From Cloeon dipterum (lineage: Eukaryota > Arthropoda > Insecta > Ephemeroptera > Baetidae): a DNA stretch of 64,000 nt. The number at the start of each line of letters is the position of its first letter. Positions within the stretch are counted from its first letter, which is position 1. The DNA lies in the NCBI RefSeq assembly GCF_949628265.1, contig NC_088786.1, forward strand, positions 18,869,681 through 18,933,680. Reading direction: 5' to 3'. Position numbers and translations under genes: made by a program. The notes below the pieces were generated by a model. That model saw only the letters and a list, made by a program, of their open reading frames with translations, made no database searches and was not told the origin of the DNA. Below are positions 2,658 to 63,286 of the stretch, piece by piece.

Positions 2658-4597
2658 ATGCCTATATGTTGTGTCCCTGGATGCTCAACATGCTCCAAAA
2701 CGGCTTACAAGTATCCAAAATTCAAAGGGGTAAAAAATTGATATACATATCATAGATATAGTTTTTATCGTTTTTATTATTAATTATGAACTCACAGTGG
2801 TTGTAAAAAGAAGCTAAAAATTATTAATTAAAATATTATCTTTTTATATTACACATAGGTCCACCCAGTCATAGGCACCAGATTGTTCACTATCCGTCCA
2901 AACCAGAGAAAAGCATGGAGTAAACTTTTGAAAATTGAAGATCCCAATCCCAACTGGAGTAATATGAGAGTATGCTCTAGGCATTTTACCATGAAGCAAT
3001 ACTACAGAGACAAGATTGAACGATTTTTGAAGTCGGGCAAACTTCTGTCAAGAGGAGATACGATTTTGCTCCCTAATGCTGTTCCTGATAAATGCCTACC
3101 AGGTGATGCTGACGAGGAGCAAAACCTTGAAGAAGTTGACGACGTTTTTGACAGAAAAATCTACAGAGCTCGTAAAGCCAGCATCAAGTATGTATATTTA
3201 TATGCAGAATGCAAAAATTTAATCAATTTTATTTTACAATATGTACATGATTAAATTAAAATTTTAGAAGGTAGTGCGATTTCATATAATATTCATTGAA
3301 TATTAAATACATGAAATTAGATACAAGTTTATTTACTTTCCAGAAAATGCATAATGGAGAAGAGTGTTGAATCAAGCCCGTCTTATTCGGAAGACAGCCA
3401 TGAGTGCGACCCTGCTGAGGGTGGAGGGGCTGCCGAGTATTTATATTAAAATTAGAAACTTCAAATTTTTAAATATTATAATAACAGCAATCTTGCCTTG
3501 AATGAAGCTTGTCCAACTTTGGCCATGGAAATTGAATTGGACTCCTGCCCAATCAATTCAGTGAGCAGACAAGAAAGTGCTGGTGACTCACTAGAAAACA
3601 TATCAGCACCTGAGGTGCCTGGATCGCATCATGAAGGGAAAGGTTTGATTGACGTCGAGCAACAAGGTGCCTCAAGCAAATTGTGAGTAAAATAATTTGT
3701 AACTTAATCTATGATACTAGCCAAACCATTTAAATGATATGTTGTAGATCTCAAAATAGTGCTAGTGACGTTCAGCAAGGCTCATCAATCGTCAACTTGC
3801 TCTCTTCAGTAGGGCTTGGAACTTCTCGACCCTACCTAAGGTTAGTATTATTTGTTTGCCATTCAAATGTTGTTTCATAAAATTTTCAACAAGTCAAGGA
3901 AAATATATTTTTCCAAATATATAAACCAGTTCTCCCATGTCTTGAGTTAGCTGCTGGTTTCATTCATGTCAAAATATGTAACATAATATTATAAATTATG
4001 TTGGAAGGCTTTGTAAAATGAACTACGAAGAGGACTTGCCTGAACATGCTCAAAGGTACGAGGGATTCTTCAATAAATATCCCTGTGAGGTTGTAACCAG
4101 GTATGCACTAATTTTATATTATATATATGAATTTACGTATTTAAAACAATATCAAATTTTATGGGGAAAATTTAGCACTACTTTAAAGTTGGGCAGAAAA
4201 ATAATAAGTACTTCAATTAAACAGGAAATTTCTCACGGATACAAAACAGACAGCAATAAAGGCTGATTTATGGATTCAAAATATGGAGAGGCAAGTGCTT
4301 GACCTGGAAATGGAGCTAATGAAGTCCAAATCAAGGGAGGAAACCCTTGCAAATGAAGTGAAGAGGCGTGAGGAAACATATGAGAAAGCTATGGAGAATC
4401 TTCGTAGTGTATTCAGCAAATCACAACTTGACAGACTCATTGAAAATAAAAACACTCCATGGAGCGACGATGACTCCAAGAAAGCACTGACATTGTTGGA
4501 GGCAAGCAGCCAGGCGTATGATATGATCAAAAGGGTGTACAAGATCCCAATGCCCTGTGAGTCAGCCCTCAGAAATCAAGTGGCATCAATGAAATAA
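2658..4597 (+). CDS. THAP zinc-finger protein with truncated P-element-type transposase region
   Basis: Seven exons (2658-2729, 2859-3187, 3344-3436, 3488-3682, 3748-3840, 4008-4100, 4225-4597) join in phase to give 415 residues. The start is the ATG of MPICCVPGC, the usual THAP N terminus. The THAP C2CH finger uses Cys 4 or 5, Cys 9, Cys 63 and His 66; Trp 44, Phe 67 and an AVP box (NAVPDKCLP) are also present. THAP domains bind DNA. The middle (about 110-290) is acidic, Ser-rich and low complexity. Residues about 312-355 form a charged coiled coil. The last 60 residues (FSKSQLDRLI, then WSDDDSKKALTLLEASSQAY, then KIPMP) resemble the segment just before the catalytic domain in P-element and THAP9 transposases. 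The RNase H-like catalytic part is absent: a stop ends the protein there. It could be a domesticated DNA-binding regulator or a decayed copy; the intact splicing and open frame favour a working gene. Confidence 0.85.
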
Positions 4598-26962: not shown

Positions 26963-28637
26963 ATGAGGTGGGCGAAAAGACCATTTTTCGCGGTGTTTGC
27001 CACTTTATTGGGCTACGTGGCTGTCGTGCTCCTATTTGAAAGCATAAAAAAAATTCAAGACAAGGTACGAGAGGAGTATTTGAAGCAAGGTGATGATGGA
27101 GTTTGGCAGAAAGTCGTAGGCACTAAGTAAGTTCCGAAAAAATGGATAAAAAAATGTTTCACTCACTAATGGGCGAAGATACGAGTTTTTGGTTTTCTCA
27201 GCGTACGTAGAAGACAGGGATATTGAGGTACAACATTCGTTCAAGACTCAACCAGCCGTTCGGATAGTCGGGGTTGGCAGACAAATACAAGGAAAGATGG
27301 CCGAGAGATTGTACTGCCGATTTTTGTACAACACCGACAAAACGAGCGGCGTGAATGAATCAGGAAGGTGACGACGGAAATTAAATGAATATCCACTCCA
27401 ATGTTTCTAACGATTTTAAAAATTTAAGTGTGCTGGGGAAAGCAGCATTGGTGCCGATAAAAGAGAACTGGGGTCTCAATTACACCGCCTGCTTCATATT
27501 TTGCAGCATCTCAAAAAATGGCACTATTCCATCCAGCGTGTCAATTTATTCAGAGGCATCCAGCAAGCGTTACCTTGAAACTCAGGACCTGAAAGATCTA
27601 AATGACTCCGGGAACCGATTATCGGTCCAAAACCGGAGAGCTGAAGATAGGAAAGTCACAACGGAGATCAATATGGCTGCATGTATCAACCCTATGCATA
27701 GCAACTTCAGCAGAGTCAGTTTAATTAATAATTTTCTTGTCTCAAATCCCTAAATCGCAATAAATAAATAAATATTAAGCTTCACATTTAAATCATTTTC
27801 CCCTACTATAAAAACCATATTGATATATAGCAAGGATTTTTTCAATTAATATTCTTTTGAATCCTTGGTCAGGTATGGCCGCTAATCGAATGGTTGGAGA
27901 TGAACAAGATGTTGGGCGTGTCACACTTTTACTTCTACAACCGCAGCATGGCACCGAATGTAAGTTGCGCCTTCAACCATTACATCAAGAAGGGCGAAGT
28001 AACCGTACTCGATTGGCGAACCAACCTGCCCAGATTCCTGGTGAGAACCAACGTGCAGATCAGGGACGGCAACATCTTTGCCGCCATGAACGACTGTCTG
28101 TACCGCGGAATGTTCAAGCACAAGTATTTGATGTTTGCCGACTTTGACGAGTTCCTCGTGCCGGAGGGGAAAGACGCAAACTTGCTTAAATTTGTTGAAA
28201 AGATATCAGCGAAGGAAAAGAAGGTGGCATCGTTTCTGTTTAAAAACACATTCTACTTTCTGGAGTGGCCAACCGATCCCAAGTACAAAGGTCTGGATCT
28301 GATCACGCAGACAAAGACTATAAGGCAAAAGGGGTTCGACCCGCCAATGTCGAGGTCAAAATATATAACCAAGCCAGAAAGAGTAACCATGGTGGGCAAC
28401 CACTTTGTCTGGGAAAACACAAACGGTGCGTGGACCTGGAAGGGGCTGAACGAAACAGAAGCCTCCAGCAGACACTACAGAATTTGTGAATTTCCGCCAG
28501 ATGTGTGTCGAAATCCCCAACGAGGAGAGAGAGACGCGCGGATGTGGGACTTTGAAAAGCAGTTGTCTGAAAAAATGAACCAAGTGCAGGAGGAGATTGG
28601 CAAAAAGTGTGGACTGGAGCGGATCAAAATGGTTTAG
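26963..28637 (+). CDS. Glycosyltransferase family 92 protein (type II Golgi enzyme)
   Basis: Four exons (26963-27126, 27179-27367, 27429-27714, 27873-28637) join in phase to give 467 residues ending in TAG. GT92 (DUF23) enzymes transfer sugars in the Golgi; the worm member GALT-1 adds galactose to core fucose of N-glycans. The protein starts with a short cytoplasmic tail and one membrane span (residues 8-25), a type II topology. The GT92 fold shows as EFLVFSAYVEDRD, KENWGLNYTACFIF, MAACINPMHSNFSRVWPLIE, then EMNKMLGVSHFYFYN. The metal-binding D-x-D site is FADFDEFLVP (Asp 303 and Asp 305), and HYR at 414-416 is the usual late motif. Length is normal for the family. All key motifs are present, so it should be active, but donor and acceptor sugars cannot be read from sequence. 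It lies inside the long intron of a minus-strand gene. Confidence 0.92.

Positions 28638-51812: not shown

Positions 51813-52071
<259 letters not shown>

Positions 52072-53929: not shown

Positions 53930-54006
<77 letters not shown>
53930..54006. repeat. TG dinucleotide microsatellite
   Basis: A perfect run of about 38 GT units. The complementary motif (CA on the minus strand) is the same as in the other large arrays of this window. Confidence 0.95.
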
Positions 54007-54814: not shown

Positions 54815-56537
54815 TTAGGAACTGTTGGAATTATCTTCAGCAGATTCCACAGAGCGCTTGTCCCTGGACTCGTCGGAAACATTGGCAGTCTCCTCAGCAG
54901 ACTCGACAGACCGCTTGTCCCTGGACTCGTCGGAAACGTTAGCGGTGTCCTCAGCTGACTCGACAGATCGCTTGTCCCTGGACTCGTCGGAAGCGTTGGT
55001 GTCTTCAGCTGACTCGACAGAGCGCTTGTCCCTGGACTCGTCGGAAGCGCTGGTATCCTCAGCAGACTCTACAGAGCGTTTGTCCCTGGATTCATCAGAA
55101 ACGTTGGCGGTGCCCTCAGCAGATTCAACAGATCGCTTGTCCCTGGACTCGTCGGAAACGTTGGTGTCTTCAGCTGACTCGACAGACCGCTTGTCCCTGG
55201 ACTCGTCGGAAACATTGGCAGTCTCCTCAGCAGACTCGACAGACCGCTTGTCCCTGGACTCGTCGGAAACGTTGGTATCCTCAGCAGACTCTACTGAGCG
55301 TTTGTCCCTGGACTCATCTGAAACGTTGGTGTCTTCAGCTGACTCGACAGAACGCTTGTCCCTGGACTCGTCGGAAACGTTGGTATCCTCTGCAGACTCG
55401 ACAGACCGCTTGTCCCTGGATTCGTCGGAAACGTTGGCGGTGTCTTCAGCAGACTCTACAGAGCGTTTGTCCCTGGACTCATCTGAAACGTTTGTGTCTT
55501 CAGCTGACTCGACAGATCGCTTGTCCCTGGACTCATCTGAAACGTTGGTGTCTTCAGCTGACTCGACAGATCGCTTGTCCCTGGACTCGTCGGAAGCGTT
55601 GGTATCCTCAGCGGACTCGACAGAGCGTTTGTCCCTGGACTCGTCGGAAGCGATGGTATCCTCAGCGGACTCGACAGAGCGCTTGTCCCTGGACTCGTCG
55701 GAAGCGTTGGTATCCTCAGCAGACTCTACAGAGCGTTTGTCCCTGGACTCATCTGAAACGTTTGTGTCTTCAGCTGACTCGACAGATCGCTTGTCCCTGG
55801 ACTCGTCGGAAGCGTTGGTATCCTCAGCGGACTCGACAGAGCGCTTGTCCCTGGACTCGTCGGAAGCGTTGGTATCCTCAGCAGACTCTACAGAGCGTTT
55901 GTCCCTTGAGTCGTTGGAAACGTTGGTGTCTTCAGCAGATTCTGCAGAAATGGACCTCTTATCCCTGGATTCATTTGAGTCAGCAGTGTTCTCAGCAGAC
56001 TCTGCAGAGCGGTCGGATGCAGAATTTTCCTCCACAGACCCAGTCGAGGGTTTGCCGTTTGACTCATTTGACGCAGAATTGTTCTCTGCAGATTCAGCTG
56101 AAGGTTTTCCTTTGGACTCGTTAGACGCTGAATTTTTCTCTGCAGATTCAGCTGAAGGTTTTCCTTTGGACTCGTTAGACGCTGAATTTTTCTCTGCAGA
56201 TTCAGCTGAAGGTTTTCCTTTGGACTCGTTAGACGCAGAATTTTTCTCCACAGACTCAGCCGAAGGTTTTTCTAAGGACTCGTTTGAATTGTTCTCTGTT
56301 GACTCCTTGTTCGCTGAGTTGAGGATAGATTCATTGGAGCCTTTGGATGCTTCGTCAGACTCCTTACTGTTAAACAAATTCCCCCACGGTTTTGTTTCGA
56401 CTGCACACAGCAAAGCCACAAAGAGCAGTGCGAAAATTGCTCTGTAACAGAAAAGTTTCAAAGTTAGATAAAGTTGAACCCGCAAGTCTAAATTAGATAG
56501 GCTTCGAAAAGTAGATATTCACTCACCTGTGTCTCAT
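54815..56537 (-). CDS. Secreted tandem-repeat precursor with 21 RDKR cleavage sites
   Basis: Two exons, 56537-56527 (ATG AGA CAC AG) and 56441-54815, join over an 85-bp GT-AG intron to give 545 residues. The start MRHRAIFALLFVALLCAVET is a clear signal peptide. After a short Ser/Asn/Glu-rich stretch come about five 18-residue units of the form GKPSAESAEKNSASNESK. Twenty units of the form SVESAEDTNVSDESRDKR (18 or 19 residues) follow, and a short tail ends DNSNSS. RDKR occurs 21 times and fits the furin consensus R-x-K-R. Nearly every unit also has an N-V-S or N-A-S glycosylation sequon. There are no Cys or C-terminal Gly residues, so peptides would be neither disulphide-bonded nor amidated. 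If cut, it would release many acidic 14-18-residue peptides. It could be a peptide precursor, a gland secretion or an extracellular matrix component. I know no family for it. Confidence 0.88.
54829..56275. repeat. Coding tandem array, 54-57 bp period
   Basis: The DNA under the precursor gene repeats every 54 bp (57 bp where an extra Ala is present). Two sub-arrays share the period: about 54829-55975 encodes the RDKR type, and about 56040-56275 encodes the GKP type with almost identical adjacent copies. Lengths are multiples of three, so unit gain or loss keeps the frame. Confidence 0.9.
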
Positions 56538-56627: not shown

Positions 56628-56635
56628 TATTTATA
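56628..56635 (-). promoter_or_regulatory. TATA box of the RDKR-repeat gene
   Basis: On the minus strand this reads TATAAATA, about 90 nt upstream of the ATG at 56537. A start site some 30 nt downstream would fall near 56600 and give a 5' UTR of about 60 nt. A TATA promoter fits a tissue-specific secretory gene. Confidence 0.5.
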
Positions 56636-59701: not shown

Positions 59702-61824
59702 CTATTTGTCATCCAGCTTCATCTCTGCCATTGCCAAACTGAATCTTTCTCTCAAACTCTGCTCGGCCACCTGCTGAATTTTTGTGGTCTCTCTGTTCCT
59801 AACCTCCCACAGTTGCAGCAGCGCACAAAGCCTTTCAGCCAGCCTACTTAGTCGACTTGTTTCGTCTTCAGCACTAATAACTTTGTTTTCCATATCGCCC
59901 ATCCTGTTGTTCGTGTCGGTCCTCAAGGTGCCCACCTCGCTCTTCAAACTGGCAACAACCATGTCCAAGTGCATTTGTACACCCCACAGCCGCTGCTCTA
60001 GGTGCTCTGAAATGTTGGATAACTGCTGCTGATGCCAGTTCTCGTGGCGTACCTAATAAATCCTCCGTCTTAATTTTACATTTACCAAATTATGCAGTAA
60101 GAGCTGGTTTTTTAGTTGCCTGTATTTTATCAAGTTAAAGATGCGATATTATTTAAAACTAATGGTACCTGCTGACTGCTGCAGTAGTTCAGTTTATGCA
60201 AAATGCTATTTTCACTCCTTTCCAGTCTCTTCACTAATTCTTCTTCGTTTCTATTGCAGCTGATAGATGAGACAATTTTGTCAAGCCTTCCTTCAAATAT
60301 GTCCAATTTTCTGTCCAGTATTTCCCAATTTCCGATCTGACTAGAGAGTTTGAAAATTTTCTCCTCTAATTGCTTCCTTGTCTTCTTTTCTTCTTCCAAA
60401 TTTATTTCTCGTACACTGCTGATGAACGTGACGAGTTGTTCGTGGGACTCTGCACAACCAGCTTGTAGGCTCGATATTTTTTCCTTGAGTGAGAGCTGCA
60501 CAGGTTGAATTGAATCTGCCTCTTGTTGCATATCCTGCACCCTTTCTTCAAGCTGCGATAGCTGGCATTGGAGAGCAGACAATTTTTCTCTGGAAATAAA
60601 AAAACCTTTAGTCTGAAAAAAGAGATCGGAGAAAATAATTTACTAACTTTTGCATTAGATTTTGTTCTTGTAAAGTTCTCTGGAATTGTTCTAAACTAAC
60701 ATCCAGCTGCTCAGTAAAAGAAATACTTGCGTTCTCCAAAGCTTTATTCAGTTCCTTTAAACAGACGAAATAATGTATAGTAATTATTCCCCTGTTTAGT
60801 AGTCCTAAGTTTTACCTTTATATTTTCCTTTTGAGAAGCAACCAATCCTTCCAGTTGCCCCAATCTTTCTTTGAACTCCAGATTCTGTTGTTTTAAAATT
60901 CGCAATTCTTCTTTTAATCTGGAATTAATATCCTCAGATTGTTTTTGTTGTTCTTCCTTTATCATGGCCAAAATTTGTTCTTTCATTTTGTCCGTCAATT
61001 CAAATTTCACTGCTGCAGCAACTGGTTTGCTTTCCTGTGGTGCTGGAATGGCATCAGCAACACGCCGCCGCTCCTCGACTCGGGGCACAAGCTCGTCTTC
61101 CGTTTTAAGTATTTCCAAATGAAGAGGAGCCCTATTATCTTTGACTTTTGCATCTTTTTCTTCTGTTCTTGGCTTCTCCAAATATTTTTCTGGCTGGAGA
61201 AATTCTTCCCACAAAACCTCTGTTGGCTTTGGTTTCCCTGCTCTTCGCCTCCCTCTTATTCCTGGTGATGGCTCATAACTATTCAGACTTCCCTGGACAT
61301 CATCTTTCTCTCTTACAATGGGTATTGCTGGGTTTGAAGGAGGTTGTCTTATATCAAATTCTATTTTGGGTTTAACCTCTTTAGGTAGCACTTCTTCAAC
61401 GTCGGATCCAAATAATTCTGCCAAAAGTTCCGATTTTTTACTTTTTGGGATCCCCAAAGGAGCAGACTTTGTAGCGGCTGGGATTATTTTATAACTTTCT
61501 TGAACGTCTGGATCTGGAAGTGGTGGCGAAGGTGACTTATTTGGCACCGTTTTCGGGATGTTTGCCGTTCCAAATAATCCTGCATCCAAGTCGTCCATGT
61601 TCTAAAGAAAAAATAAATAAATCACAAAGATTGTATGATAGAAATAATTTTAGATTTAAGAGTCAGGCTGCACCAGGGCTGCACTTTGTAGCTTATTTTA
61701 CTATTCTGTTATTAATTCGATTAATTCAACTTACAGCAAGCATTTCTTGCAGTTCACCATCAGAAACATCAGACACGTCATCTTCCAAAGCGTCCTTGGC
61801 CAACCTCCCATAAAAATCGCTCAT
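59702..61824 (-). CDS. FBF1: FBF1-like centriolar distal-appendage protein
   Basis: Five exons (61824-61735, 61601-60816, 60754-60648, 60589-60169, 60052-59702) join in phase to give 584 residues. Fas-binding factor 1 sits on distal appendages of the mother centriole and helps anchor it for cilium formation. The N terminus has an acidic helix followed by a short Asp/Leu/Gly motif (GELQEMLANMDDLDAGLFG), which resembles the start of FBF1 proteins. A second acidic motif is SELLAELFGSDVEE. Residues about 90-220 are disordered and rich in Pro, Glu and Lys. From about residue 225 to the end the protein is almost continuous coiled coil, as in the FBF1 C terminus. It is about half the length of the vertebrate protein, mainly through a shorter disordered part. 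The name rests on N-terminal motif and layout, so another coiled-coil centrosomal protein remains possible. The start ATG has no upstream in-frame alternative that splices. Confidence 0.7.
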
Positions 61825-62869: not shown

Positions 62870-63286
62870 TTAAAACTTCCCGATCAATTTATTGTACCAC
62901 ATTCTAAAGTGCAAGGTGACTAGTCTCTTGTGCAAGCTGGGGTGAAAGGGGTTAAAGTTAACTTTCTCCAATCTCTTGAGATACAAATCTGCAGGCACGC
63001 TGGTCAACAAAAACGGCACTACTTCTTTTGGCACTTTAACTGTCCTTGCTTTGTCCAAATGGCGAAATGCCCGTCTGGCCACCTCATACACTGCATCCTG
63101 GACTTCCTTGTCAGACCCATGCCTGCGCACCATTTTCTCAGGATGCACCTTGTTCCTGCGCAACGTGTCCTTCGGTATGCCCAGTTCTGAGGAGTGAGTG
63201 GCGTGGGCTAGCCCTCGCAAGGCGTAGGTCAGTCCGATCGCCTTTCCCAGCCGACTTGTTGCATTGATCAGGTTCATGTAGTCACT
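62870..63286 (-). CDS. NDUFAF6: NADH dehydrogenase complex I assembly factor 6 (NDUFAF6), last exon
   Basis: This exon runs from an acceptor (TTTTCTAG, ending at 63287) to a TAA stop and encodes 138 residues. The rest of the gene lies beyond the right edge. NDUFAF6 is a mitochondrial protein of the squalene/phytoene synthase fold needed for early assembly of complex I. The exon starts SDYMNLINATSRLGKAIGLT and continues with LRGLAHATHSSELGIPKDTL, matching the family region in which the active-site helix is followed by LGKA-G and a lipid-pocket loop. The ending, LLTSVPADLYLKRLEKVNFN followed by PFHPSL, matches the family C terminus (FL-SV-LE-FLK-L-KV-F--FHPSL). The frame at the acceptor is phase 0. 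Identification is strong although only part of the protein is visible. Confidence 0.92.
   Translation of the reverse strand, partial: SDYMNLINATSRLGKAIGLTYALRGLAHATHSSELGIPKDTLRRNKVHPEKMVRRHGSDKEVQDAVYEVARRAFRHLDKARTVKVPKEVVPFLLTSVPADLYLKRLEKVNFNPFHPSLHKRLVTLHFRMWYNKLIGKF

What the first reader, a model, noticed from the sequence alone, without database searches (positions are those of the whole stretch)
54815..56537. Undescribed-looking secreted polyprotein with 21 RDKR sites and a sequon in nearly every unit
The sequence shows a signal peptide, then 20 tandem 18-19-residue units, each bounded by RDKR. R-x-K-R is the furin consensus, and KR is also the prohormone convertase site. Of the 20 units, 18 carry an N-V-S or N-A-S sequon. 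Such a precursor could release up to 20 near-identical acidic glycopeptides, an arrangement like yeast alpha-factor or insect neuropeptide precursors. However, there is no amidation Gly and no Cys. I know no arthropod peptide family with this unit.
Basis: partly seen in the sequence, partly recalled or inferred. Interest (0 to 1): 0.78.

Follow-up and report, generated by a model that had tools for sequence, protein, structure and literature searches.

The report
Wasp polyprotein with twenty cuttable repeats
A gene of what is probably a tiny wasp encodes a secreted-looking, strongly acidic protein made of about 20 near-identical short peptides separated by textbook cutting sites, a layout known from some insect defence peptides and yeast pheromone, but built from a peptide not met in the searches made, so its job is unknown and testable.

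Summary
On the minus strand, window 56537-54815, a two-exon gene encodes 545 aa: hydrophobic start, acidic leader, 21 RDKR sites, 20 units (14 of 18 aa, five of 19, one of 20) and a 12-aa tail; 18 of 20 units carry N-V-S or N-A-S. Unit-to-unit variation is mainly synonymous in this frame, and at the 21 RDKR sites six synonymous but no nonsynonymous variant codons occur, so the exact site is probably selected. The genome (190 Mb, five large contigs) suits a Trichogramma-like wasp (inference). No relative was found elsewhere in this genome, in Pfam, or in the viral and prokaryote collections; insect proteomes could not be searched. Two additions: the leader holds four homologous 18-aa units ending KGKP/NGKP, without RDKR; and both unit classes share three S-x-E motifs (Fam20C consensus, recalled), one standing at P1' of 20 of 21 cut sites, as in FGF23. 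Furin-like and Fam20C-type genes are present. Best reading: a polyprotein cut at RDKR into 20 acidic 14-16-aa peptides, perhaps phosphorylated. Main rival: an uncut acidic phosphoprotein. Such layouts are known (apidaecin, hymenoptaecin, baramicin, salivary PRPs, alpha-factor); this unit is not one I know.

The parts
56628..56635 (-). TATAAATA sequence about 90 bp upstream of the ATG
   Evidence: exact match; function inferred
56527..56537 (-). coding exon 1 (ATGAGACACAG)
56442..56526 (-). 85-bp intron, donor GTGAGT, acceptor TTTTCTGTTACAG
   Evidence: splicing not tested with RNA
54815..56441 (-). coding exon 2: rest of signal region, leader, repeat array, tail, stop
55955..56441 (-). rest of the signal region and acidic leader, residues 4-166, ending with the first RDKR
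   Evidence: coordinates computed from residue numbers
56048..56263 (-). four leader units of 18 aa, type SAESAEKNSASNESKGKP, without RDKR (residues 64-135)
   Evidence: coordinates computed from residue numbers
54854..55954 (-). array of 20 units, type SVESAEDTNVSDES-RDKR (residues 167-533)
   Evidence: coordinates computed from residue numbers
54815..54853 (-). C-terminal partial unit SVESAEDNSNSS and stop codon
54721..54726 (-). AATAAA polyadenylation-type signal about 90 bp beyond the stop

Best explanation
The gene encodes a secreted, disordered polyprotein that is probably phosphorylated in the Golgi on S-x-E serines (perhaps also N-glycosylated) and then cut by a furin-type convertase after each RDKR. 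After trimming of the basic residues by a carboxypeptidase this would give about 20 acidic peptides of 14-16 residues (eight distinct sequences by my count, type SVESAEDTNVSDES), a leader fragment and a 12-residue tail. Tandem duplication raises the dose of one peptide per transcript. Shown here: gene structure, repeats, conservation of RDKR and of the reading frame, presence of convertase and Fam20C-type genes. Inferred: secretion, phosphorylation, cleavage, release. The role (defence peptide, secretion laid with the egg, polyelectrolyte of a mucous or coat layer, or signal) is open; I lean to a defence or gland secretion because the closest layouts in Hymenoptera are of that kind.
For: RDKR ends every one of the 20 units and the leader. 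The sites were found by searching for RDKR, but the unit lengths of 18-20 aa show that no boundary inside the array was lost. Over the 21 sites six distinct synonymous variant codons and no nonsynonymous one occur, against 7 synonymous and 28 nonsynonymous mutational opportunities (P = 6e-5; 3e-4 with transitions weighted 3). At the 14 other positions 17 synonymous and eight nonsynonymous variants occur. Of six frames the sense frame shows the strongest synonymous excess (21 to 8, P = 3e-8). R-x-K-R followed by S-V suits furin (recalled). Six P_proprotein matches, all over the cut-off, lie at five places of this genome; one locus shows, by eye, furin-type catalytic, P-domain and Cys-rich stretches. 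The model is disordered, mean pLDDT 38, made without an alignment. S-x-E occurs 83 times from residue 21 on, against mean 20.5 and maximum 34 in 1000 shuffles; Fam20C-family matches lie at three places, two of them strong.
Against: No RNA, proteome or peptide data. Four leader units of the same length end KGKP or NGKP, not a convertase site, so the unit also exists without it. Duplication and gene conversion can keep copies alike without selection, and variant codons in repeats are not independent events. The secretion signal was judged by eye and by a helix at residues 7-17 of the protein in the model; no signal predictor was run. The shuffles for S-x-E ignore that the units are copies; for one unit P is 0.007 (RDKR class) and 0.016 (KGKP class).
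Confidence: 0.55

Rival explanations
1. An uncut secreted acidic phosphoprotein or polyampholyte: acidic, phosphorylatable blocks alternate with short basic patches (KGKP or RDKR) every 18 residues, and the long disordered chain itself works, for example as coat, glue or calcium-binding secretion.
For: Leader units keep the 18-aa length, the S-x-E positions and a basic patch but not RDKR; net charge -70 from residue 21 on; disordered model; Fam20C-type genes present.
Against: Charge alone would allow R to K exchange, yet none is seen over 21 sites that do show synonymous variants; a secreted protein with 21 R-x-K-R sites would meet convertases in the secretory pathway (established knowledge).
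Confidence: 0.25
2. A neuropeptide or hormone precursor acting through a receptor.
For: Many copies bounded by basic sites.
Against: Ser instead of an amidation Gly before each site, no Cys, strongly acidic unit that varies in its middle; no relative in the searches made, which do not cover insect proteomes.
Confidence: 0.1
3. A fast-evolving repeat gene in which RDKR has no role and the sameness reflects recent amplification.
For: A higher-order period of 165 points to repeated amplification; single locus without relatives in this genome.
Against: Frame intact over 545 aa with start, splice sites and hydrophobic start; synonymous bias strongest in this frame.
Confidence: 0.08

Closest known systems
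Ant hymenoptaecin and bee apidaecin multipeptide precursors (Hymenoptera)
   Same: Signal and leader, then repeated units set apart by basic convertase sites (RR, KR or RxxR); [quoted passage not shown]
   Different: Those units are antibacterial domains with an EAEP spacer (hymenoptaecin 97 aa); here the unit is a short acidic peptide without Pro or EAEP.
Drosophila Baramicin A
   Same: Precursor whose tandem, related 23-residue peptides are freed at RXRR furin sites (passages of PMC8423362).
   Different: Three IM10-like copies plus other peptides, immune-induced; no sequence comparison was run here.
Human basic salivary proline-rich proteins PRB1 and PRB2
   Same: Tandem repeats of about 20 aa and products excised at furin-like R-S-X-R sites (passages of PMC3235478).
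   Different: Pro-rich; products span several repeats, so not every repeat is cut out (my reading of the product table).
Yeast alpha-factor MFalpha1
   Same: Repeat number affects the dose of one short peptide (abstract of PMC5850478).
   Different: Yeast pheromone; Kex2 and dipeptidase processing (recalled); no homology claimed.
FGF23 cleavage region
   Same: RXXR179/S180 with Ser at P1'; FAM20C phosphorylation favours furin cleavage (passages of the review PMC13341720). That S180 lies in an S-x-E context is recalled.
   Different: One site in a hormone that the cut inactivates; here 21 sites in a disordered chain; no homology claimed.

Membership tests
Multi-copy secretory peptide precursor (architecture) | N-terminal secretion signal | tested here: inconclusive
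   hydrophobic start MRHRAIFALLFVALLCA; helix at residues 7-17 in the model; no signal predictor run
Multi-copy secretory peptide precursor (architecture) | Several near-identical units each bounded by a basic convertase site | tested here: met
   20 units, 21 RDKR
Multi-copy secretory peptide precursor (architecture) | Demonstrated release of the peptides | not testable with these tools
   needs peptidomics
Apidaecin/hymenoptaecin precursors | Pro- or Gly-rich cationic mature peptide with EAEP-type spacer (EAEP; rest recalled) | tested here: not met
   unit is acidic, without Pro, Gly (one unit of 20 has a Gly) or EAEP
Amidated neuropeptide precursors | Gly before the basic site (recalled) | tested here: not met
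   Ser precedes RDKR at 21 of 21 sites
Any Pfam family | Profile match | tested here: not met
   0 families at E up to 0.1 for residues 6-545
Fam20C substrate | S-x-E motifs (consensus recalled) | tested here: met
   83 motifs against shuffled mean 20.5, maximum 34; the same three positions in the consensus of both unit classes; the first RDKR unit has fewer
Fam20C substrate | Phosphate shown on the serines | not testable with these tools
   needs mass spectrometry

The most novel reading that the evidence does not exclude
A wasp lineage built a tandem array of about 20 phospho-gated furin sites: at 20 of 21 sites R-D-K-R is followed by S-V-E, a Fam20C-type serine at P1', so Golgi phosphorylation could set how many acidic phosphopeptides are released from one chain, a many-site version of the FGF23 switch, with a peptide class not described before.
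Probability: 0.2. Interest if true: 0.7.

Novelty: new variant of a known kind. Interest (0 to 1): 0.45.

Why it matters
If the peptides are released, this is a peptide class not met in the searches made, delivered at about 20 copies per transcript in an insect that is probably an egg parasitoid. Leader units without cut sites beside homologous units with perfect ones would record how a repeat became, or ceased to be, cleavable, and the S-x-E serine at P1' allows a direct test of whether secretory phosphorylation tunes convertase cleavage in insects.

Tried and rejected
Relatives. Pfam: none. PDB sequences: one match at E 0.002, to a chain called a polyalanine model, taken as a composition effect. 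Viral contigs: none confirmed of 6 pattern matches. Prokaryote genomes: none confirmed of 21 pattern matches. Own genome by protein: 10 of 10 matches of a unit query are this gene; of 9 matches of a leader query 8 are this gene and one (C2, E 0.16) lies in another frame that looks like a coiled coil by eye; these counts are lower bounds by the tool's own words. Own genome by degenerate codon pattern: 23 matches, 20 in this gene, 3 elsewhere, against 6 for the reversed control pattern. One of the three reads RDKRSVE (C1:28154773) and was not examined; the other two read SDKRWVE.

Taxon. The telomerase-domain search found nothing, and its controls rang nowhere, so it says nothing. Of ten contig starts fetched, 160 bases each were looked at and two were run through the repeat finder; I recognised no telomere motif. 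The SIFamide frame reads AYRKPPFNGSIFGKR, which I recall as the bee form. Trichogramma assemblies of 187.6-235.4 Mb at 40% GC (passages of PMC12341880) suit; five chromosomes in Trichogramma is recalled. Species not proven.

Literature. Searches aimed at the peptide, its layout or the taxon: 20 of 222 papers listed; 20 of 35; 12 of 31,298, too broad to count; 15 of 89; 15 of 42. No listed title or abstract start describes such a peptide; RDKR occurs in 0 of the 15 papers listed. Passages of the Nasonia antimicrobial-peptide survey PMC2853521 (12 of 20 places shown) describe internal repeats in defensin-like and hymenoptaecin genes but no acidic array. Subscription papers were out of reach, so absence in print is not shown.

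The antisense frame 54819-56447 is also open, has two internal Met only and a weaker synonymous excess (P 1e-5 against 3e-8), as expected because its third codon positions coincide with those of the sense frame; rejected as a gene. Rfam and tRNA scans of the window were empty.

Full report
What is there. The finding lies on the minus strand. Exon 1 (56537-56527) gives ATGAGACACAG; an 85-bp intron with consensus ends follows; exon 2 (56441-54815) completes a 545-aa protein. The protein has no Met after the first, so the spliced start is needed. A TATAAATA sequence lies about 90 bp upstream of the ATG and an AATAAA about 90 bp beyond the stop. The protein has a hydrophobic start, a leader up to the first RDKR (ending at residue 166), 20 units between 21 RDKR sites, and a 12-residue tail. 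Unit lengths are 20 (one), 18 (14) and 19 (five). Without RDKR the 20 units give eight distinct sequences (my count). Eighteen of 20 carry N-V-S or N-A-S.

Is it a real, constrained gene? Among the 20 units, variant codons in this frame are 21 synonymous and 8 nonsynonymous, against 37 and 121 opportunities (P = 3e-8); four of the other five frames show no excess, and the antisense frame that shares the third codon position shows a weaker one (20 and 9, P = 1e-5). For RDKR alone (21 sites) there are six synonymous variant codons and none nonsynonymous (P = 6e-5). Two cautions: the sites were located by the motif itself, though unit lengths of 18-20 aa show that no boundary inside the array is missing; and the P values treat distinct variant codons as independent events, which duplication and gene conversion weaken. 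They are a guide only.

The leader contains four 18-aa units, SAES(A/V)E(K/N)NSASNES(K/N)GKP, which align in length and in residues with the RDKR units. They end KGKP (three) or NGKP (one) and have their sequon at another place (N-E-S). The consensus of both classes shares S-x-E at positions 1, 4 and 11. From residue 21 on there are 83 S-x-E, against a shuffled mean of 20.5 and maximum of 34; for a single consensus unit P is 0.007 (RDKR class) and 0.016 (KGKP class). Not every unit keeps all three: the first RDKR unit, SISAESAEDTNVSNDS, lacks the one at position 11 and has S-I-S at its start. S-x-E is the consensus of the secretory kinase Fam20C (recalled); Fam20C-family matches lie at three places in this genome, two of them strong. 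At 20 of 21 RDKR sites the next residues are S-V-E, so such a serine stands at P1'. In FGF23 the site RXXR179/S180 also has Ser at P1', and FAM20C phosphorylation favours its cleavage by furin (passages of a review, PMC13341720; the original paper is not held).

Sequon. A sequon arises in 30% of permutations of one RDKR unit and is missing in 2 of 20 units, so glycosylation is possible but not supported as the point of the unit.

Organism. The window is C1:18869681-18933680 of a genome of 190.1 Mb in 10 contigs, five of 33-43 Mb and five under 1 Mb. The CpG observed/expected ratio of the window is 1.02. The SIFamide frame reads AYRKPPFNGSIFGKR. Trichogramma assemblies span 187.6-235.4 Mb at 40% GC (passages of PMC12341880). 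I infer a Trichogramma-like chalcid wasp; this is not proven.

Relatives. All ten matches of a unit query and eight of nine of a leader query are this gene; the ninth (E 0.16) lies in a frame that looks like a coiled coil. A degenerate codon pattern gave 20 matches here and three elsewhere, fewer than the six of the reversed control. Pfam, viral contigs and prokaryote genomes gave none; PDB sequences gave one match to a polyalanine model. Eukaryote proteomes could not be searched.

How it most likely works. A convertase cut after each RDKR, and trimming, would free 20 acidic peptides of 14-16 residues, a leader fragment and a tail. P-domain matches at five places, one with furin-like catalytic and Cys-rich stretches by eye, show that convertases are encoded. 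The model, made without an alignment, is disordered (mean pLDDT 38), which suits an accessible many-site substrate. Against it: leader units without the site show that the repeat can exist uncut, and the basic patch every 18 residues in both classes could be a charge pattern of an uncut polyampholyte (net charge -70 from residue 21 on). I hold cleavage more likely because charge alone would permit R to K changes, of which there is none over 21 sites.

Comparison. The layout is known: ant hymenoptaecin and apidaecin, baramicin, human salivary PRPs, alpha-factor. The unit fails the composition test for the hymenopteran antimicrobial precursors and the amidation test for amidated neuropeptides. 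I file it as a new variant of the multi-copy precursor layout with unknown role, not as a member of any of these families.

Noticed in passing
2859-4597 +: THAP domain (Pfam E 6e-7, over cut-off) followed by a weak P-element transposase HTH match (E 5e-4, below cut-off): possibly a P-element-like or domesticated transposase gene; a DNA search listed one copy in the genome, this one.
   Followed up: partly
27861-28637 +: Glycosyltransferase family 92 exon (Pfam E 9e-40).
   Followed up: no
62870-63286 -: Squalene/phytoene synthase-family exon (E 4e-14), by recall like the complex I assembly factor NDUFAF6.
   Followed up: no
59702-61601 -: Three neighbouring open frames that look like exons of a coiled-coil protein; by recall like FBF1, but Pfam gave no match over a cut-off.
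   Followed up: partly
51814-52066: Perfect (CA)n run of 126.5 copies, and a (GT)n of 38.5 copies at 53930-54006, near the repeat gene.
   Followed up: no
54819-56447 +: Antisense frame open over nearly the whole of exon 2, a by-product of codon choice.
   Followed up: yes
L012, L015, L017 (starts of contigs C4, C7, C9): Satellite-like sequence sharing the word ATCATCTGAAGTTTGATG or its reverse complement, seen by eye.
   Followed up: no
G000:C1:28154773-28154793 +: A single RDKRSVE-encoding word elsewhere on the same contig; chance level by the control, not examined.
   Followed up: no
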